Of a DNA stretch of 64,000 nt, positions 24,511 through 46,999 are shown piece after piece. Under the pieces are notes generated by a model. It saw only the letters and a list, made by a program, of their open reading frames with translations, did no database searches and was not told where the DNA came from. Source of the stretch: Mycobacterium persicum. Lineage in GTDB: Bacteria; Actinomycetota; Actinomycetes; Mycobacteriales; Mycobacteriaceae. Position 1 is the first letter of the stretch. Each line of letters opens with the position of its first letter. The translations under genes and the position numbers were made by a program. The stretch covers positions 1-64,000 of the forward strand of contig NZ_MVIF01000017.1 of NCBI RefSeq assembly GCF_002086675.1, read 5' to 3'.

Positions 24511-25326
24511 TCACCCCTCCACCGGCACGAACACGAAGTTGTTGACGTACACGCCGTGGACCGCCCACGAGTCGTCCGGGCCGCCGATGTTTGCCGGGTT
24601 TTGATGCTGCGTGGGGTCGAACTCTTCGACCGGCCGCCGAGTGTCGCCGAGTTCGAAGTAGCCCGCATAGCCGAAGCCCGTCAGCAACGCGGTGATGTCA
24701 GCGACGGCGTTGGGGCGATGGCGTTCCTCGGCTTCCACCAGAATCACCGGCCGGTTGCGCCGGAGCGTTTCCGCGGCGCCGCGCAACACAGCCAGTTCGT
24801 GGCCCTCGACGTCGATCTTGATCAGGCCGACGCCGTCCAACCGCAGATCGTCGAGGCGCTTGACCGGCACGTCGATGCACTGGATGCCGCTGCCATCCAC
24901 GTCGCCCAGGACATTGTGGGTGTCGATCGTGCTCCGGCCCGGTTCGGAGTCGACGACACGCATGGCCGCCACGCCGGACTTGTCCGAGAGCGCCACCGCC
25001 TCCACCCGCACCGCGGCGTCGACCGCAGCGAACATGGCCGCCAGATCGCGGGCCTGGGCCGGCCGGGGTTCGAACGCTATGACCGACCGCGACGCCGGAA
25101 GCATCGCGATCGTGACGTCGCCGACGTCGGCTCCGATATCCAGCGAAATGCGGTTCGGATCGCATAACGACGCCGCCAGCCGCGCGTCCGTGCCGGATTC
25201 GTCGAGACGCTGGAGCAATCGGTATTTCCGCCGCCAGAACAAGCGTGGCGCGACAGCTTTCACCGCCGGGGCCAGCCGGCGTTTGACCGAGCGCGCTAGG
25301 GGCATGTGGCGTATCTCCAGCAGCAT
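24511..25326 (-). CDS. FkbM-family SAM-dependent methyltransferase
   Basis: This 271-residue protein carries the FkbM signature: SAM-binding LDIGADVGDVTIAM (residues near 62), VIAFEPRPAQARDL, and IKIDVEGHELAVLRGA. FkbM enzymes O-methylate sugars or polyketides. A basic N-terminus (RSVKRRLAPAVKAVAPRLFWRRKY split over two clusters) is typical of the GT-linked members. It is transcribed towards the tRNA and divergently from the wzz-like gene, 318 bases away. The target is probably a hydroxyl of the island's polysaccharide (inference). Confidence 0.8.
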   Translation of the reverse strand: MLLEIRHMPLARSVKRRLAPAVKAVAPRLFWRRKYRLLQRLDESGTDARLAASLCDPNRISLDIGADVGDVTIAMLPASRSVIAFEPRPAQARDLAAMFAAVDAAVRVEAVALSDKSGVAAMRVVDSEPGRSTIDTHNVLGDVDGSGIQCIDVPVKRLDDLRLDGVGLIKIDVEGHELAVLRGAAETLRRNRPVILVEAEERHRPNAVADITALLTGFGYAGYFELGDTRRPVEEFDPTQHQNPANIGGPDDSWAVHGVYVNNFVFVPVEG

Positions 25327-25644
25327 TTCCTCGCGATCACCGGCTGTGCGTCCATGGCCATTCGCTACCGGCTACCTCGTTGCTGGGCGTGAAGATAACG
25401 CTGCGGCGTGGATCCTACGCTATGCCCGACTCCCTACCTGTCCTGCCAGGCAGGCGAGCCGCGGCGCGGCATACCGGGAGTCAGCAAAATTCGCGATTGT
25501 TCGGCCCTACGCAGCGATCTTGACGATGCGTTGCACGGTAATGCTGCATAATGTGCTCGCGGTCGGCGCCGCGGGTGCGCAGTAGACAGTATCGGCCCTA
25601 TTCGTGTGACGTCGGGTCAAGGTCGGGTCAAGAAAGGGCAGTGG
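25327..25644. promoter_or_regulatory. Divergent intergenic region between FkbM and wzz-like genes
   Basis: No gene is seen in these 318 bases. They separate divergent genes and so should hold two promoters. The part from 25500 to 25560 is AT-richer than its surroundings (ttgacg at 25520, cataat at 25547, but 21 bases apart, too far for a standard pair). A clear ribosome site agaaaggg at 25631-25638 precedes the wzz-like ATG at 25645. Confidence 0.4.
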
Positions 25645-27027
25645 ATGGATTTCCGCACCTTCGTTCAGACCCTCCTCATGCGATGGAAACTCGTCGCGGC
25701 CGCGCTGCTGGCCTGTCTGGCCGGTGCGGCAGCAGTCACGATCTTCCAGAACAAGGCGTACCAATCGTCGGCCACCGTTTTCATCTCGATTGCTGGCGCG
25801 ACCGACGTCACCGAGGTCTACTGGGGCGGGCAGGCTGCACAAGACCGGTTGTCGTCGTACGCCGAGATTGCCGGCGGGCGTGCCGTAGCAGAGCGCGCCG
25901 TCAGTCGTCTGCAACTCCCGATCAGCGGCGACACCCTGGTGAGCAATACCCAGGTGAAATACACCCCGAAGTCGATGCTGTTCACGATCACCGTCACCGA
26001 TACCGATCCCAAGCGTGCCGCGCTGCTCGCCGGAGCGATGGCCGATTCGTTTGCCACGCTGGTCCCGACACTCGACCTCAACGCGCGTCCGCAGGGCCGG
26101 GACGCACCCCAGCCGCCGAAGCCGATGCCGACGGCCACCGCGATCGTCGTCAAGCAGCCCGAGATACCCAGCCGTCCGATCAGGCCGATGCCGCTGCGCA
26201 ACTTGGCGATGGGACTCACCGCCGGGGTGCTGCTTGGCATCGCGGTGGCACTGACCCGGGAGGCCAGCGATCGCACCGTCCGCAGCCGCGGGAAGTTGGA
26301 ACAACTTTCCGGCCTGCCGACATTGGCCGAATTGCCCGGAAAGCACGGCACCACACCGCGGTTCGGCTCCGACGTCACGGTCGACGACGCGGTGCGCGGT
26401 TTGCGCACCCGACTGCTCAGGGCCATCGGACCCGAGGCCCGTCGCGTGCTGGTGGCAGCGCCGTTCGGCGGTGAAGGAACCACGACGACGGCGCTGAACT
26501 TGTCGCTGGCGCTTGCCGAATTCGGCGAAGACGTGCTGTTGGTCGAGGGCGATACCCGCCGACCCGTGATCGCCGGTTTGCTGCGAGTCGAATCGGGGGA
26601 GGGACTGGCCAACGCGCTGGCCAACCCCGCTATTGCCGCCGAAACCGTGAAGCGGACGCCGATTTCGAAGCTGTTCATTCTCGCGTCCCGATTCGTCCGC
26701 CGCGAGACTTCGCCCTGCAGTGCCTATCTACCGGAAGTGATCGACACCGTGCTGGCGGACCTGTCGTCGCGTTTCGACCGAATGGTGGTCGACGGGCCGC
26801 CGGTGCTGGCGACAGCCGACACCGGTCTGCTGGCCGGCGCCGTTCAAGCCACGGTGTTAGTGGTGCGGGCGGGGCGCACCACCGTCGAGGAACTCAACGA
26901 CGCGCTGACCGCGCTGCGCGCTGCCGGCGCGCAGCTCGCCGGCACCGTGCTGACCGACGCCCGAGTGCCCCGGCACACCAGAGCCGCGGCTCGGATCTAT
27001 CGGGCAAAGGTCAGCGGGTCGCCGTGA
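25645..27027 (+). CDS. Wzz-type chain-length regulator fused to a degenerate BY-kinase domain
   Basis: The protein has 460 residues: a Wzz domain with two membrane helices (about 17-33 and 187-203) around an extracytoplasmic loop ending in the Pro-rich QPEIPSRPIRPMP, then a cytoplasmic P-loop domain like CpsD/Wzc. The P-loop is GGEGTTTTALNLS: the essential Walker A lysine (position 279) is Thr. Walker A' is VLLVEGDTRRP and Walker B MVVDGPPVL (Asp383). There is no C-terminal tyrosine cluster, only one Tyr (452) in the tail. It should regulate polymer length with the Wzy protein, whose GTG overlaps its TGA, but a normal kinase activity is doubtful. Start chosen at 25645 for its ribosome site. 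Confidence 0.85.
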   Translation: MDFRTFVQTLLMRWKLVAAALLACLAGAAAVTIFQNKAYQSSATVFISIAGATDVTEVYWGGQAAQDRLSSYAEIAGGRAVAERAVSRLQLPISGDTLVSNTQVKYTPKSMLFTITVTDTDPKRAALLAGAMADSFATLVPTLDLNARPQGRDAPQPPKPMPTATAIVVKQPEIPSRPIRPMPLRNLAMGLTAGVLLGIAVALTREASDRTVRSRGKLEQLSGLPTLAELPGKHGTTPRFGSDVTVDDAVRGLRTRLLRAIGPEARRVLVAAPFGGEGTTTTALNLSLALAEFGEDVLLVEGDTRRPVIAGLLRVESGEGLANALANPAIAAETVKRTPISKLFILASRFVRRETSPCSAYLPEVIDTVLADLSSRFDRMVVDGPPVLATADTGLLAGAVQATVLVVRAGRTTVEELNDALTALRAAGAQLAGTVLTDARVPRHTRAAARIYRAKVSGSP

Positions 27028-28496
27028 TTTTCTACCTGCGGGATCGCCATCGCTTGGTGACGACCGGAGCAGTGTTCGCCACTTTTCTGTTCGGATGCTT
27101 TCTGGTGGGTGTGTTCGCGGTACGCCAGACCGGTCAGGGACTGATGCTGATCGCAGCGATATTCAGCCTGGTCGTGTACTGGGCAAAGCCCGAAGCGATG
27201 GTCTGGGTCGCGCTTTTCTGGGCGTTCGCGGCACTGCCGGCCGACTTGCACGTCGGCAAGGTCGTCGGCCCGGCGGTGATTTACGCCTACCAGGCAGCGC
27301 TGGTGCTGGCGATCTGTTACCTGATCCCGGTCGTGAAACCGCGATTCTCCGACTTCGTCCTGCCGGGGATGTTCGCGTTGATGGTGGTGTTTTCGACCGT
27401 TGCCGGACTGGCCGCCGGACATGCCTCCTGGGTGGTGATCCGTGAATCGACGACGCTGCTCGAAATGGTCGCCGGATTCATCCTTGCGTTGCTGATCGTG
27501 AAGGGCAATTACGTCAAAGGGTCGATCCATGCGATGGTCCTGATTCTGTGGTTCTCGGCTGCCATGGCAATCGTGGGTTCGTTTCATGCCATCCGGCTCG
27601 CCGGCCGGGCCGAAACCCTGCAGGGCACCGGTGCCGGCGAGGCCCTGCGGATCATCCTGTCGGCCCAGACACCGGCCACCGCCGTGCTGACCGCACTGAT
27701 CGCCGCCGCGATCGTCGGGGGAGCCAGGCCCGCAATGTATCTGGCGCTGGGCCCACCCGCGTCGATCATCACGCTGCTGTCATTCAGCCGAAACCCATTG
27801 ATCTCGTTCGCGGTGGCCGCCGTCGTCGCCCTACTTGCCGGGTTCAGCTGGTCAACCCTGCGCCGATCGGTCACCCTTACCGCGATCGGTGCGGTCGTCG
27901 TTGCGGCGACGCTGGCATGGTCGCTGTTCTTGCTGCAGGGTTCGTCGACCGGCGCGTGGGTCGCCGAGCAGTTCAGCGCATTCAATCGCCGGGTGCTCGG
28001 CGGGGTTTCGACGGGTGCGTTGGCAGTGGACCCATCGACGCTGGACAGGCTGCGCGAAGTCGACAACCTCGACCGCGCGATCGCGCAGGCGCCGCTGTTC
28101 GGCCACGGTCTGGGCTATGCCTACCAGCTGCCGTACGGGAACGACCCGGACGAGTTCACCATGAAGTTCTATCCGACCTACTCCCATCTCTTCTACCTGT
28201 GGTGGCTTGCCAAGGCCGGGGCGGTGGGCATGGCGGCATTTGCCGTGTTCGCGCTGACGCCGCTGTTTCGGGCGCTGCGCCGGGCATCGGCGCCGGCGAA
28301 GATCAGTGCGGCGGTCAGCGCCGGCCTCCTCGCGATGTCCGCCGTATGGCCGTTGCCGGAGATGCCGACCGACGCCGTTTCACTGGGTCTGGCCCTGGGA
28401 GCGACGATGGGGTTCGCCGGCGCGCGGTCCACGGGCGCGGAAGCGGACGGGACGGCCGCCAACCGGGCGCCGGTGCTCACCGGTGGGCTCGGGTGA
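27024..28496 (+). CDS. O-antigen ligase/polymerase (Wzy-like) membrane protein
   Basis: This 490-residue protein has about ten to twelve hydrophobic segments, a central LLSFSRNPLISFAVAAVVAL segment and a large extracytoplasmic loop (about 315-390, with NLDRAIAQAPLFGHGLGYAY and KFYPTYSHLFYLWW). This is the architecture of the O-antigen ligase/Wzy superfamily. It should polymerise flipped lipid-linked repeat units. The GTG start shares GTGA with the wzz-like stop, and its own stop overlaps the next glycosyltransferase GTG, so the three are coupled. Polymerase rather than ligase is inferred from the pairing with Wzz and Wzx. Confidence 0.78.
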   Translation: MIFYLRDRHRLVTTGAVFATFLFGCFLVGVFAVRQTGQGLMLIAAIFSLVVYWAKPEAMVWVALFWAFAALPADLHVGKVVGPAVIYAYQAALVLAICYLIPVVKPRFSDFVLPGMFALMVVFSTVAGLAAGHASWVVIRESTTLLEMVAGFILALLIVKGNYVKGSIHAMVLILWFSAAMAIVGSFHAIRLAGRAETLQGTGAGEALRIILSAQTPATAVLTALIAAAIVGGARPAMYLALGPPASIITLLSFSRNPLISFAVAAVVALLAGFSWSTLRRSVTLTAIGAVVVAATLAWSLFLLQGSSTGAWVAEQFSAFNRRVLGGVSTGALAVDPSTLDRLREVDNLDRAIAQAPLFGHGLGYAYQLPYGNDPDEFTMKFYPTYSHLFYLWWLAKAGAVGMAAFAVFALTPLFRALRRASAPAKISAAVSAGLLAMSAVWPLPEMPTDAVSLGLALGATMGFAGARSTGAEADGTAANRAPVLTGGLG

Positions 28497-29690: not shown

Positions 29691-30449
29691 TTGACGCAAA
29701 GCGAAGAGTTCGCCGAGCAGTTCTTCGAATTGCAGACGGAGTCCAACAAAGAGTATTGGCACCGGCTGGGATTCGCGGCCCCGGACTGGACCGGCAAACG
29801 CGTGCTCGATGTCGGCTGTGGCCTCGGAGCGCTGTCCATCGAAATGGCTCAAGCGGGGGCCAGTGTGCTGGGCGTCGATCTGGACGAGAACCTCATCGCA
29901 TTCGCCAACCGCAAGGTGGCGCAGGAATTTCCGCAGTTGCTCGACCGGGTGACTTTTCGAGCGGCCGATGCGATGTCCCTGCCGGTAGCCGAACCATTCG
30001 ATGTGATCGTCTCCAAGGACGCCTTCGAGCATGCCCCGGACGTCGCGTCGTTGCTCAAGGCGCTCGACAAGCAATTGGCCCGGCCACAGGGAATTCTCTA
30101 CGCAGGCTTCAGCCCGCTGTATTACAGCCCCTACGGCGACCATGGTCGCACCGGGCTGAAAGTGCCGTGGGCGCATGCAATTTTGCCCGAGCGTGTGGTG
30201 TATGCGGCCGCCGCCCGGCACAACGGACATCCGGTGGGCTCGCTCTTGGACATCGGCCTCAACGGCAATACCCCCGACCAGTTCCGGGCCGCGTTCGCCG
30301 CCAGTGGGCTGCGGATCATTCACCTCGCCTACAACTGCGGCGACAAACGGTTACTGCCGGTACTCGAGAAGGCCCGCAAGCGGTTCCGGCGGCTGGACCG
30401 ATTTACCACGGTCAGCATTTATGCCGTCTTCGGTGTCCGATCGTCGTAG
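29691..30449 (+). CDS. Class I SAM methyltransferase (UbiE/Coq5-like)
   Basis: This 252-residue protein has motif I VLDVGCGLGALSIEMAQAG, the acidic end of strand 2 (VLGVDLDENLIAFA) and motif IV-like FDVIVSKDAFEHAPD. The C-terminal half (YSPYGDHGRTGLKVPWAHA) resembles sugar methyltransferases that hold substrates with a Tyr/His-rich insert. The TTG start at 29691 gives the best N-terminus. It is the fourth gene of the plus-strand run wzz, wzy, GT4, and is followed by another methyltransferase. Likely role: methylation of a sugar in the repeat unit (inference). Confidence 0.75.
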   Translation: MTQSEEFAEQFFELQTESNKEYWHRLGFAAPDWTGKRVLDVGCGLGALSIEMAQAGASVLGVDLDENLIAFANRKVAQEFPQLLDRVTFRAADAMSLPVAEPFDVIVSKDAFEHAPDVASLLKALDKQLARPQGILYAGFSPLYYSPYGDHGRTGLKVPWAHAILPERVVYAAAARHNGHPVGSLLDIGLNGNTPDQFRAAFAASGLRIIHLAYNCGDKRLLPVLEKARKRFRRLDRFTTVSIYAVFGVRSS

Positions 30450-30577
30450 GCCGATTCCGGGCCGGAATTGCCCAGTCTCGCTTTATGTCTGAATACATTG
30501 CGCTCTTGCGGACGGCCGCCGCGACAGATTACTCTCGCTACGCGGCACTTGCCGGCTGCAGGTGTTCTAATGCCGCG

Positions 30578-31294
30578 ATGCTAGATTCACCGACGGGCGA
30601 CCTCAAAGAGTCGGGGCGAATGTCAACCTGGTTGCGGGATGCCGCTACGGGCGTCAATTCCAGACGATCGCTGTCCGGGCGCGCTCGGGCGCGACGGTGG
30701 CGGCACCTCATCGAGACCTTCCCGTCGCTTCGGGAAATGCGAGTGCTGGACCTCGGCGGAACACCCGAGTCGTGGCTATTGGCGCCGGTGCTGCCGAAAT
30801 CGGTCACGGTGGTAAACCTGCTGCCCCAGGAACCGCCGGTCGAGGGCCAGGTCAAGGGTATTGTCGCGATCCACGCGGATGCGTGTGACCTGCCCGCGGC
30901 GATCGTGAGCGACCACTTCGATCTGGTGTACTCCAATTCGCTGCTCGAACACGTGGGCGGTCACGTGCGGCGCCAACGATTGGCTGACAACGTCCGCTCG
31001 CTGGGCGACCGACATTGGGTGCAGACGCCGTATCGGTATTTTCCGATCGAACCGCACTGGCTTTTTCCCGGCATGCAATGGTTGCCCTACGAGGCGCGCG
31101 TGCAGATATCGATGCACTGGAACCGCGGCCACATTCGAACGCACACTCGTGCGCAGGCGCAGGAACAGGTCGATGAGATTGATTTGATTGGTATTTCGCA
31201 GATGCGTCGATACTTCCCGTCGTCGACCATCTGGTACGAACGGTTTGCCGGATTGATCAAGTCGTTGGTCGCCATCCAAACCGGACCGGCGTAG
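30578..31294 (+). CDS. Class I SAM methyltransferase
   Basis: The protein has about 238 residues, with RARRWRHLIETFPSLREM, motif I MRVLDLGGTPESWLLAP, and the later DLVYSNSLLEHVGGHVRRQR then HWVQTPYRYFPIEPHWLFPG. It is a class I methyltransferase of the type often found in glycan clusters. Several in-frame starts exist (30485, 30578, 30620). I chose 30578, but 30620 (MSTWLRDAATG) is equally plausible. It lies 128 bases after the previous methyltransferase and converges with the next gene, whose stop is 30 bases away. Confidence 0.68.
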   Translation: MLDSPTGDLKESGRMSTWLRDAATGVNSRRSLSGRARARRWRHLIETFPSLREMRVLDLGGTPESWLLAPVLPKSVTVVNLLPQEPPVEGQVKGIVAIHADACDLPAAIVSDHFDLVYSNSLLEHVGGHVRRQRLADNVRSLGDRHWVQTPYRYFPIEPHWLFPGMQWLPYEARVQISMHWNRGHIRTHTRAQAQEQVDEIDLIGISQMRRYFPSSTIWYERFAGLIKSLVAIQTGPA

Positions 31295-31324: not shown

Positions 31325-32071
31325 TCATCCGTCGATCTGGCCGGGCTGCGACTTGCGGATGATGTAGGTGAGATTGTTGTGCCGCCACGCTAGAGCACCA
31401 AAAGATAAGGCCGACAAGGCTTTCGCGTATGCCCGAATCACCCTGACCCGTGCACCGGTGCCGCGCACATAGTAGGTGTGGCCTCGCTCTTCCATGATCG
31501 AGCAGCCGTTTCTGCTGCAGAAGTCGCGTATCCCGTCACGGGAAATGAGGGACGAATAGTAGGTGGGAAACGGCGAGTGGCCCGGCTTTCCGGCGCCCGG
31601 GTAACGAACGAAGTACCGGTAATAAGCGACATGAACCCCGAAGGGCATGCGCCTTGCGGTCCAGCCGTACACCGAGTCCCGGTCTGGGACCCGCAGCACC
31701 AGCAGCCCATCCGGCTTGAGCCCGTTGACCATGTTCACCAGCGCGCGCTCGGCGTCAGGTATGTGCTCGAGCACGAACGAGTTGTAGATGACGTCGTAGC
31801 GGCCGGCCGGAATGGTCGCCGGCGCCGTCAGATCGCCGATGATCGCCTCGTGCAGGTCTCCGATCTTGTCGATCCGGCTTTGGAGCGCATCAGCATCGAG
31901 ATCGATACCGGTCAGCCGATAGTCGACGCCGTCGAGATCGAGGGGCCAGTCGAGCCCGCAACCGGCTTCGAGGATCTCCAGTGGGCCGCCAAGACCTTTG
32001 ATAATCGACGAAACGAGTGTCACTTCCTCGTTGTAGGTGTCGACGGTCTGCAATTCCGTCCGAGTACTCAC
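31325..32071 (-). CDS. Class I SAM methyltransferase
   Basis: This 248-residue protein has motif I EILEAGCGLDWPLDLDG, YRLTGIDLDADALQ and YDVIYNSFVLEHIPDAERAL, then LLVLRVPDRDSVYGWTARRM. The Trp/Tyr-rich middle (PFGVHVAYYRYFVRYPG) is common in methyltransferases acting on glycans. GTG start at 32071. It lies 87 bases downstream of the FkbM gene on the same strand and may share its transcript. The target is unknown. Confidence 0.75.
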   Translation of the reverse strand: MSTRTELQTVDTYNEEVTLVSSIIKGLGGPLEILEAGCGLDWPLDLDGVDYRLTGIDLDADALQSRIDKIGDLHEAIIGDLTAPATIPAGRYDVIYNSFVLEHIPDAERALVNMVNGLKPDGLLVLRVPDRDSVYGWTARRMPFGVHVAYYRYFVRYPGAGKPGHSPFPTYYSSLISRDGIRDFCSRNGCSIMEERGHTYYVRGTGARVRVIRAYAKALSALSFGALAWRHNNLTYIIRKSQPGQIDG

Positions 32072-34591: not shown

Positions 34592-35743
34592 CTAGCGGCG
34601 CCGGGATGCGGCGGCGGCCAGCCACACGTCGTGCAATGCGTCCCGCCAGCGCGAGACGTCGAACTTGCTGGCACGCGCATAGGCGGCGGTGGCCAGCCGA
34701 TCGCGCAATTCGGCATCGACTAAGAGGTCTTGCAGCGCCGCCGCCAGCTGTGCTGGGTTGCCGGGCTTGACGAGCACGCCATTCACCCCGTCGGTCACCA
34801 CTTCTGGTATCGCGCCCACTGGGGTGGTCACCGGTACCACCCCGTTGGCCATCGCCTCCAGCAACGCCATCGGAAGACCCTCGCTGTAGCTGGGCAACAC
34901 GAAGATCGCCGAGTCGGCCAACAACCGGTCCCGATCCGCAGGACCGACCCACCCGGCGACGTCGATAGTGTCGTCGAGTGCATTGGCGCGAACGAACTGA
35001 CGTAGCTGCTCCACCTCGCCATCACCGGCCAGTGTCACCCGCAGGTTGGCCCGAATGTCGTTGGGCAGCAAGCCGATTGCCTGAACGAGGTCGTAGCTTC
35101 CCTTGTTGGCGCCCAGTCTGCCCAGAGACACCACCGACAATGGTCGGCGGGTGCGCGGCGCCGGCGCGTCGCGAGGCATGACCACGGGGTTGTAGAGGAG
35201 TCGGGCTTTGGACACCTCGAATCCGAGTCTCGCGGAGGACGCCACCATATGAGATTCACCGAGCAGCACCACGTAGTCGGCGCGCAGTGCCGCGCGTACG
35301 GCGCGGCGCAGCGGCGCCGGCAGCCCATCGAACCAGGTGAAGAAGTGAGAACTGTGACAATGGATAATCGTCGGGATGCCCCGCATTCGCGCTACGAATA
35401 GCGGTACGGATTTGCGGACCACGCTGCCGCGCAATGAAAAGTGCACGTGCAGTACGTCGACCACGCCGGCCAACAGCAGCGCCGAAGCCTTGAGCATGCC
35501 CGAGATCCCCGTCCATAGCCAAGCGGGCAGGGAGTCATCGACGTAGGTGGCCACCGAGCGGACGTGGAACCGCGGGTCGTTGTCCTCGATCAGCAACTGA
35601 GTTACCGCCGCCATGCCGCCGCGGCTGTTGGGTCCGGTTGGCGCGGTCCCGACGGTAAGTACCCGGATCGGATAGCGGACCGGCCCTGATGGTGTCGATC
35701 GGTTGCCACCTGGATGGTTCTCGCGGAGCCGTAGTCTAGGCAA
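34592..35743 (-). CDS. GT4-family glycosyltransferase (paralogue of 28493-29614)
   Basis: At 383 residues it shares with the other GT4 the strings SRGGMAAV, HVHFSLRGSVVRKSVPL, VSLGRLGANKGSYDLVQ and FVLPSYSEGLPMALLEAMAN, then PVTTPVG. The GT-B fold and EX7E motif indicate a retaining transferase using a nucleotide sugar. Donor and acceptor unknown. It stands alone on the minus strand, with a 541-base non-coding region upstream of its start. Confidence 0.82.
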   Translation of the reverse strand: MPRLRLRENHPGGNRSTPSGPVRYPIRVLTVGTAPTGPNSRGGMAAVTQLLIEDNDPRFHVRSVATYVDDSLPAWLWTGISGMLKASALLLAGVVDVLHVHFSLRGSVVRKSVPLFVARMRGIPTIIHCHSSHFFTWFDGLPAPLRRAVRAALRADYVVLLGESHMVASSARLGFEVSKARLLYNPVVMPRDAPAPRTRRPLSVVSLGRLGANKGSYDLVQAIGLLPNDIRANLRVTLAGDGEVEQLRQFVRANALDDTIDVAGWVGPADRDRLLADSAIFVLPSYSEGLPMALLEAMANGVVPVTTPVGAIPEVVTDGVNGVLVKPGNPAQLAAALQDLLVDAELRDRLATAAYARASKFDVSRWRDALHDVWLAAAASRRR

Positions 35744-38285: not shown

Positions 38286-38298
38286 CAGTCAACCGGGA

Positions 38299-39255
38299 AT
38301 GTCGGTGGAACCCAGGGGAAACAAGTTAATCTCACGCTACAAGAAAACCTACGGCATTCCGGCCGAGGTGAACATCACCGAGCAGATGATATTAGCTCAT
38401 TGGGATCTGGAAAAACAATTGACGTCAGAACTGCGTCAATCGGCTCCAGCAGACCGGTGGGATACCTTCGATCACTGCTACACCCGCCTCTACGCGGAAT
38501 TGGAGTGGCTCAACCAGTTTTCCGAGAAAGCCGACCCGCAAAATCCCCACGAAAAATTCGGGAGATGGGTCGACCTGATCGGGCAGCCACCGAAATCGAT
38601 CTATGAAATCGGTTCCGGCCAGGGCGGCCTGATTTCATTTCTGGCGGCTGGTGGTTATGACTGCCGAGGAACGGAGATCACTCGCGAACGGGGACAGAAA
38701 TTGATGCCCGAGTCACGCGCGAATCCTTCCTGGGCGATATCCGACGGCGTGCATCTCGATGAGTTCGAACCTCCCGAGTCCTACGATATCGTGGTGTCCG
38801 ACCAGCTCATCGAGCATATCCACCCCGACGATCTGGATAGTCATCTACGAAGCGTCCGCAACATATTGAAAAGCGGTGGTAAATATATCTTCAATACTCC
38901 CCATCGATATACCGGGCCGCACGACGTCTCGCGCGTATTCAAATGCGGCGAGGCGGCGGGGATGCACCTGAAAGAATACACGTGCCGCGAACTCGTCGAC
39001 GCCGCCCGGCGGGCCGGTTACCGCTCCATACATTATGGATTTGTACCCCGGCGATTCCTGCTGATCCTCACGGCGTTCGGCGTGAGAAGATTTGGTGGAC
39101 CGGACGCGGCGGGGATTTCATTTCTACGGGCCGAATTCGTCGCGGAAAGATTTCTGCGTGTCTTACGCGCTCCCGCCGTGCGCCGCGGGTGCGGAAAAAT
39201 GCTTTCCAAGTTCGGCGTTTTCTCCGAAACCCTCTCCATCGTCGCCGAGAAATGA
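38299..39255 (+). CDS. Class I SAM methyltransferase of low GC content
   Basis: This 318-residue protein has motif I IYEIGSGQGGLISFLAAGGY, then CRGTEITRERGQK, YDIVVSDQLIEHIHPDDLD and GGKYIFNTPHRYTGPHDVSR. It is a class I methyltransferase like those of glycan clusters. Its base composition stands out: by hand count three 60-base lines (38341, 38401, 38881) have 29, 32 and 30 G+C, about 50%, against clearly higher values around it. The codon use (many AAA, GAA, ATA/ATT) is foreign to a mycobacterium, so this gene is probably a recent import. It starts 13 bases after the BcsB-like stop. Confidence 0.78.
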   Translation: MSVEPRGNKLISRYKKTYGIPAEVNITEQMILAHWDLEKQLTSELRQSAPADRWDTFDHCYTRLYAELEWLNQFSEKADPQNPHEKFGRWVDLIGQPPKSIYEIGSGQGGLISFLAAGGYDCRGTEITRERGQKLMPESRANPSWAISDGVHLDEFEPPESYDIVVSDQLIEHIHPDDLDSHLRSVRNILKSGGKYIFNTPHRYTGPHDVSRVFKCGEAAGMHLKEYTCRELVDAARRAGYRSIHYGFVPRRFLLILTAFGVRRFGGPDAAGISFLRAEFVAERFLRVLRAPAVRRGCGKMLSKFGVFSETLSIVAEK

Positions 39256-39274: not shown

Positions 39275-40327
39275 TCAAGGCCGGCGGTGCGCCACCGCCG
39301 TGATGACGTCCAGCAAGCGATCCGCGGTATGGTCCACGGCGAATCGCCGCGTGTAGTGGCGTGCCGCCGCGGCTCCCTGTCGCGCCGCGACGGCCGGGTC
39401 GGCCAGCGCGTCGAAGGCGGCCGCCAGACCGGCCACGTCGTCGATACCGATGGGTGGGCGGCCCGGTGGCTGGTATTCGGGCAGCGCACCGGCGGTGGAC
39501 ACGATCGGCATGACGCCCAGCTGCATCGAGAGCACCTGCACACCGCTTTGTGAAGCGCGCCGATAGTGGGCGACCGAGCCCTTCGCGGCGGCCAGCGTCG
39601 TCACCACGTCGCGGTAGCGATAGCTGCCGGGAAGCCAGCGGGTGTGTTTGGGCAGCGGGCCGGCGTCCAGTGGCCCGCCGATGAGCACCAGGTTGTCACC
39701 TCGCCAGCCGCTGCCGACGTGCCGCTGCCAGGCTTGCAGCACCACCTCGACGTTCTTGTAGGGGTGCAGCCGGCCGATCATGACGAAGTCATGGCGTCCT
39801 TCCGGGCCGACTAGCGGCGGCACCAGGGCCGGGGCCAGGTCGCTGGTCAGCGGCACGACATGCACCCGGGTGCCGGCGACGTCGCGGCGGGTGGCGACGG
39901 CCGCGGCGACGTAGTCGCTGTAGGTCACGGTGGCCACCGAGCGGGCGCCCCAGCGGTCAAAGAGGGCGTGTTCGTAGGCCGGCCGGTGTTCGACGGGGTC
40001 GTGCGGACTGTCGTCGTGCACCAGCTGAATACGCGGAGCCCGGCCGGCCAGCGCGATCCAGCGGGGATCGCGAACCAGCTCGGCGATCACGACGTGCGGC
40101 CGGTAGTCACGGACGCGGCGCCACGCCGCGAGGCTCGCGGGCCAGGTTGCCGCGGTGCGAAACCGTGGATCGAGCACCAACTCGTAGTCACGGGCCGCGC
40201 CCGACTCCGGATGCTGGTCGGAGGTCACCAGCAGGACCTCGGTGCCGCGGCGGATCAGCGCCTCCGCCTGCACCCGTGCCAGCGACCGCATCCACGGTGA
40301 AAGCCACAGCACCCGAGGCGGATTCAT
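39275..40327 (-). CDS. GT4-family glycosyltransferase
   Basis: The protein has 350 residues: N-terminal RVLWLSPWMRSLARVQAEAL, middle HDDSPHDPVEHRPAYEHALF, donor-domain FVMIGRLHPYKNVEVVLQAW, then VLSMQLGVMPIVSTAGALPEY. It is a GT-B enzyme, probably GT4, although the EX7E glutamates are not obvious. The ATG at 40327 shares ATGA with the stop of the GT2-GT4 fusion gene, so it is the last gene of the minus-strand operon that starts at the PPE/WecG genes. Confidence 0.78.
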   Translation of the reverse strand: MNPPRVLWLSPWMRSLARVQAEALIRRGTEVLLVTSDQHPESGAARDYELVLDPRFRTAATWPASLAAWRRVRDYRPHVVIAELVRDPRWIALAGRAPRIQLVHDDSPHDPVEHRPAYEHALFDRWGARSVATVTYSDYVAAAVATRRDVAGTRVHVVPLTSDLAPALVPPLVGPEGRHDFVMIGRLHPYKNVEVVLQAWQRHVGSGWRGDNLVLIGGPLDAGPLPKHTRWLPGSYRYRDVVTTLAAAKGSVAHYRRASQSGVQVLSMQLGVMPIVSTAGALPEYQPPGRPPIGIDDVAGLAAAFDALADPAVAARQGAAAARHYTRRFAVDHTADRLLDVITAVAHRRP

Positions 40328-42324
40328 AGCACTGTGGCGATCGCATCGAGGTAGGCATCGGCCATTGCCGCAACCGTGTAGTGCTGTTGCATCCGGTGGA
40401 AGCCGCGCCGTCCCACCGATGGCAGCGCGGCGGGGTCTGCCAGGATCTCGGCCAGCTGTTCTCGCCATCCCGACACCGACACGGGTTCGACGACGAACCC
40501 CGCCCTTCCGAAGTCCAGCATTTCCGGCACCGCGCACACCGCCGACGCCGCAACCGGCACCGCCCGTGCCATCGCCTCGAGGATCACCAGCGGGAACGCC
40601 TCGGAACGGCTTGGGACGCATAGCAGATCGGCGTCGGCCAATGCCTGCCCGGGGCCCGCCGACCAGCCGCGCCACTGAACCCGGTCGCGCAACCTGGTCG
40701 GAGTGCGCGCCTGCAACCGCTCCCGGTCGGGGCCGTCACCGAAAATCGAGAGCCGCCATCGCATCTCGGTGAGGCCGCCGAGCGCCTCGATCAACAGCTG
40801 CGGGTTTTTGTGCTCGACGATCCGCGAGAGCATCACCAGGTGCGGCGGCTCACCGACGCCCCGGATCGGGGGGGCCGGGTCGCCGGCCGTGGCGACGCCG
40901 TTGGGTGCGACGAAGCGGCGTCCGCCAAGTCGATGGTGTACGGCCAGCATCTCCCAATGACGTTGTGCCAGAACGATAAATCCGTCGGCACGGCGCATCG
41001 CCGCGGTCAGTGGCCGGGAGTAGATGGGCCGGCCGTCATCCGGCGGAATGTGCGCGGCGACCAACCAGCGCCGGCCCTTGGCAGCTGCGCGCCACAGGGT
41101 GGCAAATCCCGTCTCGGTATTGGTGTCGCCGCTGATGAGCACCGCCGGGCCCGCCGGAATATCGACGATCGGCGCCCACCAGGGCTGGCGGACCACCCGC
41201 ACGCTGGGCGGAATTTCGTTGATCAGCGGGCCGAACCGTTGTACGCAGACAATGGTGACGTGATAGCCCCGGCGGTCTAATTCCGTTGCTAGCAGCGCCT
41301 TTTGACGCTCTGCACCGCCGTACACCAGGCGGTTGGTGACGATCACGATCGCCGGCGGGTCGGTTCGGCGGCCGGCCCGGGCGCTGCTGCCGGGGGAGCG
41401 CTTCGATCGATGCAGTCGCTCCACCAGCTTGGTGGCGGCCAGGTAGACGTCCGCGTGGTGAACGCTGTGTTGATGTTCGAGAAGCAGCGCGGCGTTGGTG
41501 CGCGCCAGGTCTCGGTTGCGGCGGTGTTCGGCAGCCGCGACGGCACCCTCGAGGGTCGAGCCGGCGCCGGTCACCGGATTAACCCGGTCGGCGCCCACTT
41601 CGTCGGCCAGCAGAACGCGCCAGCCCGCCGCGCGGGCCCGGTTCTGCCAGTCGGCCGCCTCGCCGTAGCGAAAGAACTCCTCGTCGAAACCGCCGATGGT
41701 GTTCCATGCCGCGCGGCTGATCGCCAGACAGGTAGTTCCCAAACAGCCTTCGATGCTTTTAGATTCGGGTGGCTGGCGGGAGTAGCGGGGTGACACCGGC
41801 GTGCTGCGCAGCGAGTCGGAGTAGCCGGCAGCGGCAACCAGCGCCCGGATCAGGGTCTCGCGGCGGGCCGCGATATCCCACGGTCGCCCACCGGGTGCGG
41901 TGTCGTCATACACCATCGGCGACACTGCCGCCACCCGAGGCCGGCGAAGCAATTCTCTGGTGCGGGTCAACGGTCCCCGTATCCGGGCATCGGCATTGAG
42001 CAATAGCAGATCGGCGTCGCTCGGGGTGTGGGTCACCAGCGCGTTGAAGGCAGCGGCGAAGCCGCGGTTCCCCGGACCCGGCACCCAGTGGACCGTCGGG
42101 TGGCCGGCGGCCAGTTCCTCGCGGCCGGGGCACCCCTGGCAGCGGCTGTCATAGACGTAGACCGGTAGCTCGGGCAGCTGCTCGGCGACACTGTGCAGGC
42201 ACATCTCGAGGCCGTCGTGGCTCTTGCCGGACACGATCAGCACCGCAAGTGACCGCTCCGACGGCAGCGTGGGCGAGTCGCCGATTGGGCGTTGCAGATA
42301 TGCCCGGTCGATTTCGCGGGTCAT
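40324..42324 (-). CDS. Two-domain glycosyltransferase (GT2 + GT4 fusion)
   Basis: This is a protein of about 666 residues. Residues about 25-270 are a GT2/rhamnosyltransferase-type domain (LAVLIVSGKSHDGLEMCLHS, NRGFAAAFNALV, LLLNADARI with the DxD-like NAD, IGGFDEEFFRYGEAADW). Residues about 325-660 are a GT4 domain (IVTNRLVYGGAERQKALLA, VMLSRIVEHKNPQLLIEAL, LCVPSRSEAFPLVILEAMAR). The two modules could add two successive sugars. The start is uncertain: ATG 42324 (MTREIDRAYLQ) was chosen over 42405, whose extension is Arg/Pro-rich. It is coupled to the downstream GT4 by ATGA. Confidence 0.82.
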   Translation of the reverse strand: MTREIDRAYLQRPIGDSPTLPSERSLAVLIVSGKSHDGLEMCLHSVAEQLPELPVYVYDSRCQGCPGREELAAGHPTVHWVPGPGNRGFAAAFNALVTHTPSDADLLLLNADARIRGPLTRTRELLRRPRVAAVSPMVYDDTAPGGRPWDIAARRETLIRALVAAAGYSDSLRSTPVSPRYSRQPPESKSIEGCLGTTCLAISRAAWNTIGGFDEEFFRYGEAADWQNRARAAGWRVLLADEVGADRVNPVTGAGSTLEGAVAAAEHRRNRDLARTNAALLLEHQHSVHHADVYLAATKLVERLHRSKRSPGSSARAGRRTDPPAIVIVTNRLVYGGAERQKALLATELDRRGYHVTIVCVQRFGPLINEIPPSVRVVRQPWWAPIVDIPAGPAVLISGDTNTETGFATLWRAAAKGRRWLVAAHIPPDDGRPIYSRPLTAAMRRADGFIVLAQRHWEMLAVHHRLGGRRFVAPNGVATAGDPAPPIRGVGEPPHLVMLSRIVEHKNPQLLIEALGGLTEMRWRLSIFGDGPDRERLQARTPTRLRDRVQWRGWSAGPGQALADADLLCVPSRSEAFPLVILEAMARAVPVAASAVCAVPEMLDFGRAGFVVEPVSVSGWREQLAEILADPAALPSVGRRGFHRMQQHYTVAAMADAYLDAIATVL

Positions 42325-42451
42325 GCCCACACCGCTTCCCGCGCCAGGCCCGCGGGCCGGCGGAGCCCGTCGCGCAACCGTCCGTGAGGATAACCGCGGC
42401 GACACCAGAGTAGCAGCGCGGCAACGACATTCGCTTCTGCTACCGGCACCG

Positions 42452-43015
42452 TCAGTCCTCGGTGAGCGCCGTGCCCGGGTGGCGGTCGTTGACGATCCGG
42501 GCCGGATACCCAGCGACGTCGACGTCGTCCGGCACCGATTTGGTGACCACCGCGCCCGGTCGGATGGCGACGCGGTTGCCGACGTCGGCGCCCAGCACCA
42601 TCGCCATCGGCGAAATGAACACGTCGTCGCCGATGGTCGGGAACTGGCCCGGCCGCCCCTCTCCTATCGTCACTCCGTGATGAATCCGGCAATTCGCGCC
42701 GACCCGAGCTTTGTAGTGCACGACTATCAGGCCGGCGTGAGCGATCGACAGACCCGGGCCAAAGACGTTGCGCGGGATGTCGAATCCGAGTCGTTCGCCC
42801 AAGAACTTGGTTCGTAACCTTAGATATGCGGCCACCACGTGTGCTGTCGGGGTCCGTGCGGTATTGGTCCAATACTCCGATTTTCGCAGCAGGCGCTGAA
42901 AATGGGCTGAACGCTTCAAGATTCGGTGACGGAGCCGCCAACGCTGCAAGCCGTGTGCTTTCAGGTCCGCTGCCAGGTATGCCCGCAAGTCCTCGCGAGT
43001 CCTGATCACGGCCAC
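42452..43015 (-). CDS. Left-handed beta-helix acetyltransferase (SAT/CysE-like)
   Basis: This 187-residue protein has an N-terminal helical part and hexapeptide repeats with GLSIAHAGLIVVHYKARVG, CRIHHGVTIG and FISPMAMVLGADVGNR. They are like the serine acetyltransferase family and the colanic-acid-type O-acetyltransferases. His/Gly residues of the coil (IHHGVTIGEG) form the usual acetyl-CoA site. Within this locus it more likely O-acetylates a sugar of the repeat unit than serine (inference from context). GTG start at 43015. It lies between the flippase and the GT2-GT4 fusion. Confidence 0.75.
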   Translation of the reverse strand: MAVIRTREDLRAYLAADLKAHGLQRWRLRHRILKRSAHFQRLLRKSEYWTNTARTPTAHVVAAYLRLRTKFLGERLGFDIPRNVFGPGLSIAHAGLIVVHYKARVGANCRIHHGVTIGEGRPGQFPTIGDDVFISPMAMVLGADVGNRVAIRPGAVVTKSVPDDVDVAGYPARIVNDRHPGTALTED

Positions 43016-43133: not shown

Positions 43134-44597
43134 TCACGCCGCCAGCTGATCGCGGCGCAGCAAGGCTAAAGTCTGCCAGGTGACCGGGCCGAACGCCGCG
43201 CTGGTGGCCAGGTACGCGGCAGCGGCAGCACCCAGTACCAGGGCCACGTGCTGACCCGAAAGCAGCAGCGTCACACCGACACTCGCCGCGGTCGGTACCA
43301 GCAACCGCAGCAAGAACGTCACCGGCGTGTGGTAACCGCACTGACGGTGTAGGCACCAGCTGGCAATCATCATGTTGGCCAGCTCCGTGCACACCAGCGC
43401 GATGCCGGCTCCCACCGCGCCCAGCCGCCCGCCCAGGGCGAGGTTGAGCACGACGTTGAACGCGAGGGTGGCGACCGACAGCCAGAACCAGAACCGCTGG
43501 CGGTGACTGGCGAACAGCCCCTCGCCCAGAGTGGTGGTGACGAAGCGCAATGCCACCGCGACGAAGAGCAGCGCCAGCGTCGGTGTGCCGCGGCCAACGA
43601 ATGCCTGGTTGCCGAACAACCTGATCAGCGGTGCGGCGAGCAACGCGCCGACAACCGCGCCCGGGACCGCCAGGAAATACATCAGCTCGACACTGCGGCG
43701 CATGAAGCCGGCAAATGCCGCGACATCGCGCGCAAACAGTTCGGTGGCCGTCGAGAGCGTGGACTTGAGGAAGAACACCGACACCACCAGGGTGTTGAGC
43801 GCGATCGAGGACGCCAAGCCGTAAACGCCCACCTCGGAATGGTTGTTCACCAAGGACAGGATCACCCCGTCGGCGCGCCAGTACAGCACGGTGATCATTG
43901 TCACGCCCATCGGAAAGAGGCTCTCCCGCAACAGATCCGCGGCCTCGCGCAACGCGAAGCTGGGACGCAACGAGACATGACGCGCGGCAGCGCTGCTCTG
44001 GATCAGCACCTGCAGGGTCGTCGGAATGAGCTGTACTACCGCGAACCAGATGACGTCGGCTCGTTCCGCCACCAGAAACGCGATCACGGCCAGCGTGGCC
44101 AACCGCCCGACGACGTCGGAGACCGCCACCGCGAAGAACCGCACGGTGGTCTGAAACACCGGCTCGAGCCGTGTCGTCATTGTCACGATGAGCAGTTGCG
44201 TCGACAACACCACGAGCATCACCCGCACTTGGTGGTCGCGATACAGCAGCAAGCCGGTTCCCGCCGCCAACGCCGCGAGCGGAACGCAATACAGCAGGGA
44301 TATCCCGTTGTAGATCCGGACCAGGCGCTCCAGATCGTCGTGGCCGGAGGTCACCCGACGCACGATCACCCGCCCGACGCCGAGATCGACCAGGCTTGCC
44401 CACATTCCGATGAATGCGACCGCGATGGTGAGCTGGCCGTAGCGGTCCGGGCCCAGATAACGAGCGGTCATTGCCACCGAGACCACCGAGGCCAGCATCC
44501 CGAGCATCCGGCAGATCAGCTGGATCGAGAACGCGTGAGCCAACCGCGCGACCGGCACCGATGGTGCTACCGCACCGGGTGCCGTCGGCTCAGTCAT
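43134..44597 (-). CDS. Wzx-type polysaccharide flippase (MVF/PST superfamily)
   Basis: The 487-residue protein has about 12 to 14 hydrophobic segments. The N-terminus has ARYLGPDRYGQLTIAVAFIG and LVDLGVGRVIVRRV, the classic start of PST-type flippases. Charged residues inside membrane segments (for example YWRADGVILSLV) are also typical. It should move the undecaprenyl- or decaprenyl-linked repeat unit to the outer leaflet. It is third in the minus-strand run: WecG/TagA-like, priming transferase, flippase, acetyltransferase, GT2-GT4, GT4. Confidence 0.85.
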   Translation of the reverse strand: MTEPTAPGAVAPSVPVARLAHAFSIQLICRMLGMLASVVSVAMTARYLGPDRYGQLTIAVAFIGMWASLVDLGVGRVIVRRVTSGHDDLERLVRIYNGISLLYCVPLAALAAGTGLLLYRDHQVRVMLVVLSTQLLIVTMTTRLEPVFQTTVRFFAVAVSDVVGRLATLAVIAFLVAERADVIWFAVVQLIPTTLQVLIQSSAAARHVSLRPSFALREAADLLRESLFPMGVTMITVLYWRADGVILSLVNNHSEVGVYGLASSIALNTLVVSVFFLKSTLSTATELFARDVAAFAGFMRRSVELMYFLAVPGAVVGALLAAPLIRLFGNQAFVGRGTPTLALLFVAVALRFVTTTLGEGLFASHRQRFWFWLSVATLAFNVVLNLALGGRLGAVGAGIALVCTELANMMIASWCLHRQCGYHTPVTFLLRLLVPTAASVGVTLLLSGQHVALVLGAAAAAYLATSAAFGPVTWQTLALLRRDQLAA

Positions 44598-44610
44598 GGC
44601 TCACGGCCAC

Positions 44611-46116
44611 CTAGTATGCTCCGTGCCCCGTCACGACGGCTTTCACCGTCTTGGCGATGATCATGAGATCACCTGCCATTGACCAATTGTCGATGTACGA
44701 CAGATCCAGCCGCACCGACTCTTCCCAGGTGAGTTCTGAGCGTCCGCTGACCTGCCATATTCCGGTGACGCCCGGCTTCACCAGGAGTCGACGCTTCACA
44801 TCACCGTTGTAGCTGTCGACTTCGCGGCTCAACGGAGGCCGCGGCCCGACCACGCTCATGTCCTGCTTGATGACATTGACGAATTGGGGGAGCTCATCGA
44901 TGCTGAATCTGCGGAGCAATCTGCCGACAGGTGTGACCCGGGGATCTTGACGCATCTTGAACAATATTCCACCGGCGCCCTGATTCATCGACAAGAGGCG
45001 GTCGATTTGGGTGTCGGCGTCGACCTCCATTGTTCGGAGTTTAAGCATCATGAAGGGCTCGCCATTAATACCTATACGTTCGGAACGGTAGCAGACCGGT
45101 CCTTTGCTGGTCAGCTTGATCGCGATAGCAGCCGCAATGAGAAGTGGCGATACCAGGATCAGCGCCGCCAGCGCGAAACAGAAGTCGAATGTCCGCTTTT
45201 GAAAGCGCTGGGCACCGGTGTATAGCGGCTTTTCGACATGCAGCAGCGGGAATCCGGCGACCGGCCGGACGGTCAATCGTGCTTCCGCGATGTCCATCAC
45301 CCCCGGCGACAACACCAAATCGACGTCCATCGTCTCCAACTGCCACATCAAGTTCCTGATCGCGTGCTCGCCGAAATGCTCGGTCTGGGTCACCACCACA
45401 GTGTCCGCGCCGCAGGCCTCAACCGCTGCCACCGCATAGGATTCGTCTCCGAGAATCGGTACTTTGCGGCCTTCGACCGTCAGGATTTCGCCGCGGGGCG
45501 CGCCATATCCGGGAATGCAGACCCCGACGACGACGTAGCCGTCGAGTGGGTTACGGTCCAGTTCATGTGCCAGGCGTGAAAGTCCTTGGCGGTCTCCGAT
45601 AGCCAGCGACATCGTCTGATATTCGCCCCGGGCTCGCTTCCGGCGGACATACCTGCGCCAGCTGTTGCGGCTCGTCAGCAATCCCAGGGTGCCGACGGGA
45701 AGCGCCACCGCCAGATAGCCCCGGGCCAAGTCAATCTTGGCGAGAAGCGTCACCATTGCGATGATCCCGAATGTCCAAAATGACGCGCTGCTGATTCGCC
45801 GGTACTCGTCGATCCCCACCCCGATCACGTGCGGTGATCGTGTGTGGAATATCGCCAGCGACGAAAGCCAGAGTGCTGCGAAGAGAAAGGAGAACAGCGT
45901 CATCACCGGGCCCGGGTAACCCGACTTGTTCGGCGAATCGCCGAAGCGGACGTATTGAGCGAGCATGACCGAGGCGAAGACGATCACCGAGTCGGTGATC
46001 AGCAGCCGCTGTGAATATCGGTGCTGCCATCGCCCGATTGCATTGCGATCGGGCGTGCGCACCGGAGCCAGAGTTACCGGCGAATTGTCGGTTCGGCGGT
46101 GAGGTGACGGGATCAC
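44611..46116 (-). CDS. Priming polyprenyl-phosphate glycosylphosphotransferase (WbaP/WcaJ family)
   Basis: The protein has about 501 residues: four N-terminal membrane helices, a Rossmann-like CoA_binding_3 domain (about 150-280), then the catalytic phosphoglycosyltransferase domain with KRTFDFCFALAALILVSPLL, YRSERIGINGEPFMMLKLRT, SIDELPQFVNVIKQDMSVVG followed by PRPPLSREVDSY, and TGIWQVSGRSELTWEE. It transfers a sugar-1-phosphate from a UDP-sugar to polyprenyl phosphate, the first step of repeat-unit synthesis. GTG 46116 is preferred because gggaaag lies nine bases before it. A longer frame begins at 46197 inside the upstream gene. Confidence 0.88.
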   Translation of the reverse strand: MIPSPHRRTDNSPVTLAPVRTPDRNAIGRWQHRYSQRLLITDSVIVFASVMLAQYVRFGDSPNKSGYPGPVMTLFSFLFAALWLSSLAIFHTRSPHVIGVGIDEYRRISSASFWTFGIIAMVTLLAKIDLARGYLAVALPVGTLGLLTSRNSWRRYVRRKRARGEYQTMSLAIGDRQGLSRLAHELDRNPLDGYVVVGVCIPGYGAPRGEILTVEGRKVPILGDESYAVAAVEACGADTVVVTQTEHFGEHAIRNLMWQLETMDVDLVLSPGVMDIAEARLTVRPVAGFPLLHVEKPLYTGAQRFQKRTFDFCFALAALILVSPLLIAAAIAIKLTSKGPVCYRSERIGINGEPFMMLKLRTMEVDADTQIDRLLSMNQGAGGILFKMRQDPRVTPVGRLLRRFSIDELPQFVNVIKQDMSVVGPRPPLSREVDSYNGDVKRRLLVKPGVTGIWQVSGRSELTWEESVRLDLSYIDNWSMAGDLMIIAKTVKAVVTGHGAY

Positions 46117-46132
46117 GCTGGCTCGCTTTCCC

Positions 46133-46999
46133 TTACACGGTTGCCGGCTCGGGCCGCGCGGCATCGCGGACGGCGCCGCTGAAATCGGGGTGATCACGTG
46201 GCGGCGTGGCCACGCAGTATGGGCTGGGATAGCAGATCAGCTGCGCGCGTGCGGCACGGAGCAAGGCGATAGGGCCCTGCAGCAAATAACGGCGGGCCAG
46301 CCGCCGCGGCTCGCTGATCAAGCGGTGCAACCATTCCAGGCCGAGTTTTTGCATCCATCTCGGAGCTCGTTTGGTCTTGCCGGCCAGGAAGTCGATGGCA
46401 CCGCCACAGGGCAGCAAAACCCGGGCACCCGTCGCGCAGCCGTACCGGTCAACCCACCGTTCTTGACGCGGCTTGCCGAGGCTGACGATCAGGATGTCGG
46501 TGCCCGCGGCGCGAATCATCGCCGTCAACCGCTCAGAAAGCGCCTCGATGTCATCGGCGTCCGGCGCCCACATTCCCGAAATAGCAAGCGCTGGATGATG
46601 TTTGCGCAAGATCGGGGCAAGCAGGCGGTGGGTTTCGGCGCTACCGCCAAAAAAGCCGACCCGCTGGCCTGTCGTTTCGGCCAGCGCCAACACGCCGGGA
46701 AGCAGGTCGGCCCCGGTGATCCGGGGCCACGGCTTGCCGGTGAGCAGCTTGCCCCGCCAGGCGATCGGCATGCCGTCGGCCAGTAACAGCCAGTCCAGCG
46801 GACCCGCGGGCGCCGACATGACCTTGCGAAAGTGGTACAGGTGGTCGAGGTTCACCGAGCCCACGGCCAGGCTCGCTGTCGGTGAGGATTGCAGTCGCGA
46901 CGCGATGATCGACAGCACGTCGTCGAACTCCCGGCGCTCGACTATGGTGCCGCCGATGATCATCCGCACACCGGTTTCGGGCACCGTGTCCACGCTCAT
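46133..46999 (-). CDS. WecG/TagA/CpsF-family (GT26) glycosyltransferase
   Basis: This protein of about 288 residues has GT26 motifs: SVNLDHLYHFRKV, LADGMPIAWRGK, GQRVGFFGGSAETHRLL, ILIVSLGKPRQERWVDRY and CGGAIDFLAGKTKRAPRWMQ, then GLEWLHRLISEPRRLARRY. The family adds ManNAc or ManNAcA to a lipid-linked first sugar. Next to a priming transferase it would make the lipid-linked disaccharide. ATG 46999 (MSVDTVPETGVRM) was chosen; ATG 47047 gives 16 more residues without a ribosome site. The PPE stop is at 47068 on the same strand. Confidence 0.85.
   Translation of the reverse strand: MSVDTVPETGVRMIIGGTIVERREFDDVLSIIASRLQSSPTASLAVGSVNLDHLYHFRKVMSAPAGPLDWLLLADGMPIAWRGKLLTGKPWPRITGADLLPGVLALAETTGQRVGFFGGSAETHRLLAPILRKHHPALAISGMWAPDADDIEALSERLTAMIRAAGTDILIVSLGKPRQERWVDRYGCATGARVLLPCGGAIDFLAGKTKRAPRWMQKLGLEWLHRLISEPRRLARRYLLQGPIALLRAARAQLICYPSPYCVATPPRDHPDFSGAVRDAARPEPATV

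What the first reader, a model, noticed from the sequence alone, without database searches (positions are those of the whole stretch)
24511..46999. Complete-looking Wzx/Wzy polysaccharide locus in a mycobacterium
Seen: a priming phosphoglycosyltransferase, WecG/TagA-type transferase, Wzx flippase, Wzy-like polymerase, Wzz-like co-polymerase, four glycosyltransferases, a deacetylase, an acetyltransferase and six methyltransferases within 23 kb. Known: Wzx/Wzy loci make capsules and O-antigens in other bacteria, while the mycobacterial capsule of M. tuberculosis is mainly alpha-glucan and mannans made by other routes. Inference: this organism makes a separate, lipid-carrier-assembled surface or exopolysaccharide.
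Basis: partly seen in the sequence, partly recalled or inferred. Interest (0 to 1): 0.88.

Follow-up and report, generated by a model that had tools for sequence, protein, structure and literature searches.

The report
Mycobacterial capsule-type polysaccharide locus with PPE
A mycobacterium of the kansasii group carries a full set of genes of the kind other bacteria use to build sugar chains on a lipid carrier, with closely related polymerase genes in about a quarter of the mycobacterial genomes searched, and the locus likely makes a surface or secreted polysaccharide that may leave the cell with help from a PPE protein whose gene travels with it.

Summary
In detail: 24,511-47,047 encodes open frames for a priming phosphoglycosyltransferase (PGT), WecG-type transferase, Wzx, Wzy/WaaL-type polymerase, Wzz-type co-polymerase, four glycosyltransferase ORFs, a deacetylase, an acetyltransferase and six methyltransferases. 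The locus is not peculiar to one strain: the polymerase has relatives of at least 50% identity in 93 of 396 genus genomes, own included; six relatives keep the flanks without the locus. The locus PPE forms one clade apart from 23 own-genome paralogues and tracks the polymerase: a strong match in 85 of 94 genomes with it, 14 of 302 without. Searches found no BcsA synthase and no OPX exporter in this genome; the co-polymerase's P-loop lacks its lysine. Best reading: a Wzx/Wzy pathway for a lineage-variable polysaccharide with a non-standard exit, perhaps BcsB-like plus PPE. Product, expression and export are untested. Nine paper searches listed no account of such a mycobacterial locus.

The parts
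24511..25326 (-). FkbM-family methyltransferase
   Evidence: PF05050 67.6 bits; TIGR01444 97.9 bits
25606..27027 (+). Wzz-type polysaccharide co-polymerase with C-terminal P-loop (BY-kinase-like) domain lacking the Walker-A lysine
   Evidence: PF02706, PF13614; Lys absent in 37 of 37 distinct homologues
27024..28496 (+). Wzy-type polymerase (PF04932; WaaL-like fold)
   Evidence: single match per genome
28490..29614 (+). GT4 glycosyltransferase (start approximate)
   Evidence: PF00534 109.7 bits on the longer ORF 27548-29614
29691..30449 (+). SAM methyltransferase
   Evidence: PF13847 and related
30482..31294 (+). SAM methyltransferase (start approximate)
   Evidence: PF13489 18.6 bits, below cut-off, on ORF 29657-31294; homologue in L172 at 85%
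31325..32071 (-). SAM methyltransferase
   Evidence: PF13489 49.2 bits
32159..33445 (-). FkbM-family methyltransferase (true start probably internal)
   Evidence: PF05050 71.1 bits
33517..34587 (+). NodB-type polysaccharide deacetylase, nearest IcaB/PgaB models (below their cut-offs)
   Evidence: PF01522 76 bits; TIGR03933 45 bits; TFDDG and H[TS]VTH in 18 of 18 distinct homologues
34592..35743 (-). GT4 glycosyltransferase
   Evidence: PF00534 120.4 bits
36129..38285 (+). BcsB-fold protein, predicted signal segment and C-terminal membrane anchor (likely start 36288)
38299..39255 (+). SAM methyltransferase
   Evidence: PF13489 41.2 bits
39275..40330 (-). GT4 glycosyltransferase (start approximate)
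   Evidence: PF13439, PF13692 on ORF 39275-40675; 45 of 52 loci
40324..42405 (-). GT2-GT4 fusion glycosyltransferase
   Evidence: PF13641 and PF00534; 44 of 52 loci
42452..43015 (-). Hexapeptide O-acetyltransferase (EpsC/CysE/WcaB-like, below cut-offs)
   Evidence: NCBIfam
43134..44597 (-). Wzx-type MOP flippase
   Evidence: PF01943, PF13440; 13 hydrophobic segments
44611..46197 (-). Priming polyprenyl-phosphate sugar phosphotransferase (PGT)
   Evidence: PF02397 221 bits; TIGR03025 417 bits; only PF02397 match in the genome
46133..47047 (-). WecG/TagA/CpsF-type glycosyltransferase
   Evidence: PF03808 168 bits
47068..48222 (-). PPE-SVP family protein co-inherited with the locus
   Evidence: PF00823 216 bits, PF12484

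Best explanation
The locus encodes the enzymes of a Wzx/Wzy pathway that likely assembles a methylated, acetylated and partly de-N-acetylated polysaccharide on a polyprenyl carrier and is predicted to deliver it to the cell surface or the medium. Predicted steps, none of them tested: the PGT loads the first sugar phosphate on the carrier; the WecG-type enzyme and the GT4 and GT2-GT4 enzymes extend the repeat unit; methyltransferases and the acetyltransferase decorate it; Wzx flips it; Wzy polymerises it with the Wzz protein, whose P-loop lacks the lysine, so control by autophosphorylation is unlikely. The BcsB-fold protein would bind the chain outside the plasma membrane, as BcsB does beside cellulose synthase, although no BcsA was found here. 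As no OPX exporter was found, the co-inherited PPE protein is the best candidate in the locus for passage through, or anchoring at, the mycomembrane.
For: Gene set with profile scores. Polymerase fold nearest WaaL, adjoining and overlapping the Wzz gene. Polymerase single-copy in 28 of 30 genomes drawn from PGT loci and in 94 of 396 genus genomes at 40% identity or more. Assembly genes kept across 52 named loci: Wzx 49, GT2-GT4 44, GT4c 45, PPE 49, BcsB-like 36, while modifying genes differ. Six relatives have the flanks without the locus, so it behaves as one unit. BcsB fold; no BcsA (controls ring in 11 of 14) and no OPX (controls in 4 of 14). PPE linkage and clade.
Against: No product, expression or mutant data. 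The Wzy profile score is modest, and PF04932 also holds ligases. No cognate phosphatase was seen and the Wzz kinase domain lacks its lysine. 9 of 94 polymerase genomes have no strong PPE match and 14 of 302 others have one; BcsB-like is missing within the 10 kb held in 16 of 52 loci, so neither can be strictly required for the pathway. Two PGT genomes lack the polymerase. All BcsB, PPE and OPX arguments about export are indirect.
Confidence: 0.78

Rival explanations
1. The PF04932 protein is a ligase or O-oligosaccharyltransferase rather than a polymerase: a flipped oligosaccharide would be moved to a protein (perhaps the PPE), a lipid or the cell wall.
For: PF04932 is named O-antigen ligase and the model's best structural match is the ligase WaaL; a PPE protein is co-inherited and could be an acceptor.
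Against: A Wzz-type co-polymerase gene overlaps the polymerase gene by 4 bp, and Wzz proteins act with polymerases (established knowledge); no solved Wzy polymerase was recognised among the listed matches, so the fold search could not favour one.
Confidence: 0.13
2. The locus builds sugars on lipooligosaccharides or another glycolipid rather than a separate polymer.
For: Kansasii-group lipooligosaccharides carry methylated sugars (recalled, from no call), and six methyltransferases are present.
Against: A PGT, Wzx, Wzy and Wzz set is not expected for sugars built on acyl-trehalose (established knowledge); no acyltransferase of that kind or polyketide synthase was seen among the locus ORFs.
Confidence: 0.07
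3. The BcsB-like protein and the deacetylase belong to a cellulose- or PNAG-type synthase system that only happens to lie in the locus.
For: BcsB fold; deacetylase nearest IcaB/PgaB models; the two are neighbours on one strand in L037; cellulose and PNAG are reported in mycobacteria (PMC12167362 passages).
Against: No BcsA-type synthase at E 0.001 in this genome, while the same search rings in 11 of 14 control genomes.
Confidence: 0.1

Closest known systems
Myxococcus xanthus EPS Wzx/Wzy pathway (PMC7484181; passages seen)
   Same: PGT, Wzx, Wzy, PCP, several glycosyltransferases and a serine-acetyltransferase-like protein; NCBIfam EPS models EpsZ, EpsA, EpsC, EpsE match four of the proteins.
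   Different: All those matches are below the curated cut-offs. M. xanthus has the OPX protein EpsY; none was found here. Here there are also BcsB-like and PPE genes.
Actinoplanes missouriensis wps and imp clusters (PMC13390465; abstract and passages seen)
   Same: Actinobacterial Wzx/Wzy-type clusters.
   Different: Monoderm host, sporangium matrix; BcsB is not mentioned in the text.
Bcs cellulose synthase BcsB (7l2z, 9fmt)
   Same: Fold over about 430 aligned residues.
   Different: 12-13% identity; no BcsA partner found in the genome.
PPE64 of M. tuberculosis, reported mycomembrane channel (PMC12802285; abstract and passages seen)
   Same: PPE family; linked there to biofilm.
   Different: Not shown to be a close relative; the paper suggests that the oligomer active in biofilm may not be the channel form; no polysaccharide role is mentioned (0 occurrences of the word).

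Membership tests
Wzx/Wzy-dependent polysaccharide pathway | polyprenyl-phosphate priming sugar phosphotransferase | tested here: met
   PF02397 221 bits, TIGR03025 417 bits
Wzx/Wzy-dependent polysaccharide pathway | Wzx flippase of the MOP group | tested here: met
   PF01943, PF13440 over cut-off
Wzx/Wzy-dependent polysaccharide pathway | Wzy polymerase | tested here: inconclusive
   PF04932 and WaaL-like fold; polymerase and ligase cannot be told apart by these
Wzx/Wzy-dependent polysaccharide pathway | Wzz-type co-polymerase | tested here: met
   PF02706 27.6 bits against 25.5; two hydrophobic segments
Wzx/Wzy-dependent polysaccharide pathway | polymer made by the locus | not testable with these tools
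   needs a mutant and glycan analysis
Gram-negative Wzx/Wzy export branch | OPX (Wza/EpsY-type) outer-membrane exporter | tested here: not met
   PF02563: 0 matches in own genome, 4 of 14 controls ring
BY-kinase / PCP-2a co-polymerase | Walker-A lysine of the P-loop | tested here: not met
   absent in 37 of 37 distinct homologues
Cellulose synthase (Bcs) system | BcsB fold | tested here: met
Cellulose synthase (Bcs) system | BcsA catalytic subunit | tested here: not met
   TIGR03030: 0 matches at E 0.001 in own genome, 11 of 14 controls ring
PPE-SVP family | PPE domain and SVP C-terminal region | tested here: met
   PF00823 216 bits, PF12484 50 bits
PPE-SVP family | secretion and mycomembrane location | not testable with these tools
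   needs fractionation

The most novel reading that the evidence does not exclude
Mycobacteria have their own Wzx/Wzy export machine in which a dedicated PPE protein takes the place of the OPX/Wza exporter as the mycomembrane exit, and an orphan BcsB-fold protein guides the chain across the periplasm.
Probability: 0.27. Interest if true: 0.88.

Novelty: new variant of a known kind. Interest (0 to 1): 0.62.

Why it matters
Two papers say that the machinery behind polysaccharides of the mycobacterial biofilm matrix is not known (passages of PMC6364259 and PMC12167362). This locus, with the only PF02397 priming transferase of its genome, gives a genetic handle on one likely polymer, and relatives of its polymerase occur in proteins named M. 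kansasii, M. marinum and M. intracellulare. With no OPX exporter found and a co-inherited PPE gene, the question of how long sugar chains cross the mycomembrane becomes directly testable by single gene removals.

Tried and rejected
Recent import: locus 65.2% GC against 66.8% and 66.5% in the flanks, too small a difference to argue from; and polymerase relatives are spread over 93 of 396 genus genomes.

Cellulose synthase: disfavoured, as no BcsA was found. Sequence searches did not identify the BcsB-like protein (no Pfam hit; NCBIfam E 0.0025; PDB by sequence nothing sensible); only the fold search did.

PE partner for the PPE: none seen by eye among the 16 ORFs listed there; not tested with a profile. 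NCBIfam gave no family for the PPE.

M. tuberculosis: not examined.

Paper searches for a mycobacterial Wzx/Wzy locus: none listed. Only 10-20 rows per search were shown, of up to 127 papers, and the library is open-access only, so this is no proof of novelty.

Against a simple 'mycobacteria lack cellulose synthase' line: a passage of PMC6364259 says that other mycobacteria (M. neoaurum, M. cosmeticum) have putative cellulose synthase genes.

Outside the genus, 6 genomes of other genera in a 201-genome family sample matched the polymerase, five at 28-36% identity and one fragment.

Rows dropped: 3 distant polymerase matches (26-28%) were left out of the 94 used and so count among its 302; 16 short PPE rows (4 locus, 12 paralogue) were left out of the tree, which used 23 of 35 fetched paralogues, out of 116 PPE matches in the genome. 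One search scored only 4 candidates per genome, and a few of the 85 PPE matches (such as G030, 54%, another contig) may be paralogues.

Full report
What is there. The window lies in a 6.17 Mb draft genome of 387 contigs. Its proteins are closest to the M. kansasii group: the PGT is 95% identical to those of M. ostraviense and M. gastri, the polymerase 92% to proteins named M. kansasii and 94% to M. ostraviense; the species was not determined. The genome holds one PF02397 priming transferase, this one. The left flank has nucleotidyl-transferase and MoeA-type genes (names galU and moeA recalled) and a gene (recalled as Rv0996-like) with a match in 389 of 396 genus genomes.

Distribution. PF02397 occurs in 305 of 396 genus genomes, so priming transferases as such are common. 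The polymerase is more restricted: 97 of 396 at E 1e-20, of which 93 at 50% identity or more (own genome included), one at 40% and three at 26-28%. A scan of named genomes with the PGT gave 56 loci, 53 of them mycobacterial and three from other phyla. Of 30 genomes drawn from the mycobacterial loci, 28 have the polymerase, one match each. Six relatives without it (G160, G026, G215, G029, G105, G015) keep the flanking genes, 1.5-13 kb apart, with no locus gene detected between them apart from a short weak PPE match in one; a seventh stretch (G058) was cut by a contig end and says nothing. In G246 the locus keeps its order but lies on the other side of the DUF5642 pair.

Core and variable parts. 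Over 52 named loci, held to at most 10 kb on each side, the counts (45% identity, half length) are PPE 49, Wzx 49, GT4c 45, GT2-GT4 44, BcsB-like 36, deacetylase 17, WecG 16, acetyltransferase 10, against 3-4 for the window's right-flank genes. Wzy and Wzz lie mostly beyond the stretch held, so their low counts in that call mean nothing; one search is the test for Wzy. In L037 (Mycobacterium sp. 852014-50255) a dTDP-4-dehydrorhamnose 3,5-epimerase gene stands between PPE and PGT, and L068 (M. palustre) has a PIG-L-type deacetylase and a C-methyltransferase. Modifying genes thus differ between lineages while the assembly core stays, as in capsule loci elsewhere (established knowledge).

PPE link. 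48 of 52 loci have a PPE on the PGT strand upstream within 4.8 kb. By my estimate from 116 PPE matches in 6.17 Mb one such place would occur by chance in about 4-5% of cases, but the loci are related and not independent. A tree of 48 locus PPEs and 23 own-genome paralogues puts the locus PPEs on one side of a branch with support 100/99. At E 1e-75, beyond the best own-genome paralogue (7.8e-74), 85 of 94 polymerase genomes and 14 of 302 others have a match; 65 of the 66 pairs on one contig lie within 40 kb, and 19 pairs are on different contigs. The 14 matches without polymerase are at 56% identity or less. In a smaller test at 1e-80, 5 of 5 polymerase genomes and 1 of 10 others matched. Relatedness of the genomes was not corrected for.

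Literature. Passages of PMC6364259 and PMC12167362 say that M. tuberculosis has no recognised BcsA or BcsB and that the machinery behind mycobacterial cellulose (and, in the second, PNAG) is not known. The M. xanthus EPS pathway (PMC7484181, passages) is the nearest characterised relative among those seen. Nine paper searches listed no account of a mycobacterial Wzx/Wzy locus (see Tried and rejected).

Noticed in passing
25606-27027: The Wzz protein's kinase-like domain keeps the fold signature but has GEGTTT in place of GEGKST, in 37 of 37 distinct homologues: a conserved, probably kinase-dead co-polymerase.
   Followed up: partly
L085 (M. tilburgii), L064 (Ca. M. methanotrophicum), L073 (M. 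numidiamassiliense): Locus apparently decaying: only fragments of PGT, Wzy and Wzz in L085; PGT without a Wzy match in the genomes of L064 and L073.
   Followed up: no
genomes G094, G318, G071, G117: The polymerase match has one TGA counted inside in four genomes; whether it is a real break or lies at the end of the match was not looked at.
   Followed up: no
Some genus genomes have up to eight PF02397 priming transferases, so several further polysaccharide loci probably await description.
   Followed up: no
40324-42405: A GT2-GT4 fusion of two glycosyltransferases in one frame, kept in 44 of 52 loci.
   Followed up: partly
51886-53607: PF04185 phosphoesterase (acid phosphatase or phospholipase C type) on the right flank, near the locus only in the kansasii-group loci (4 of 52).
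   Followed up: no
55655-57013: Tandem DUF5642 genes mark the right flank also in relatives without the locus.
   Followed up: partly
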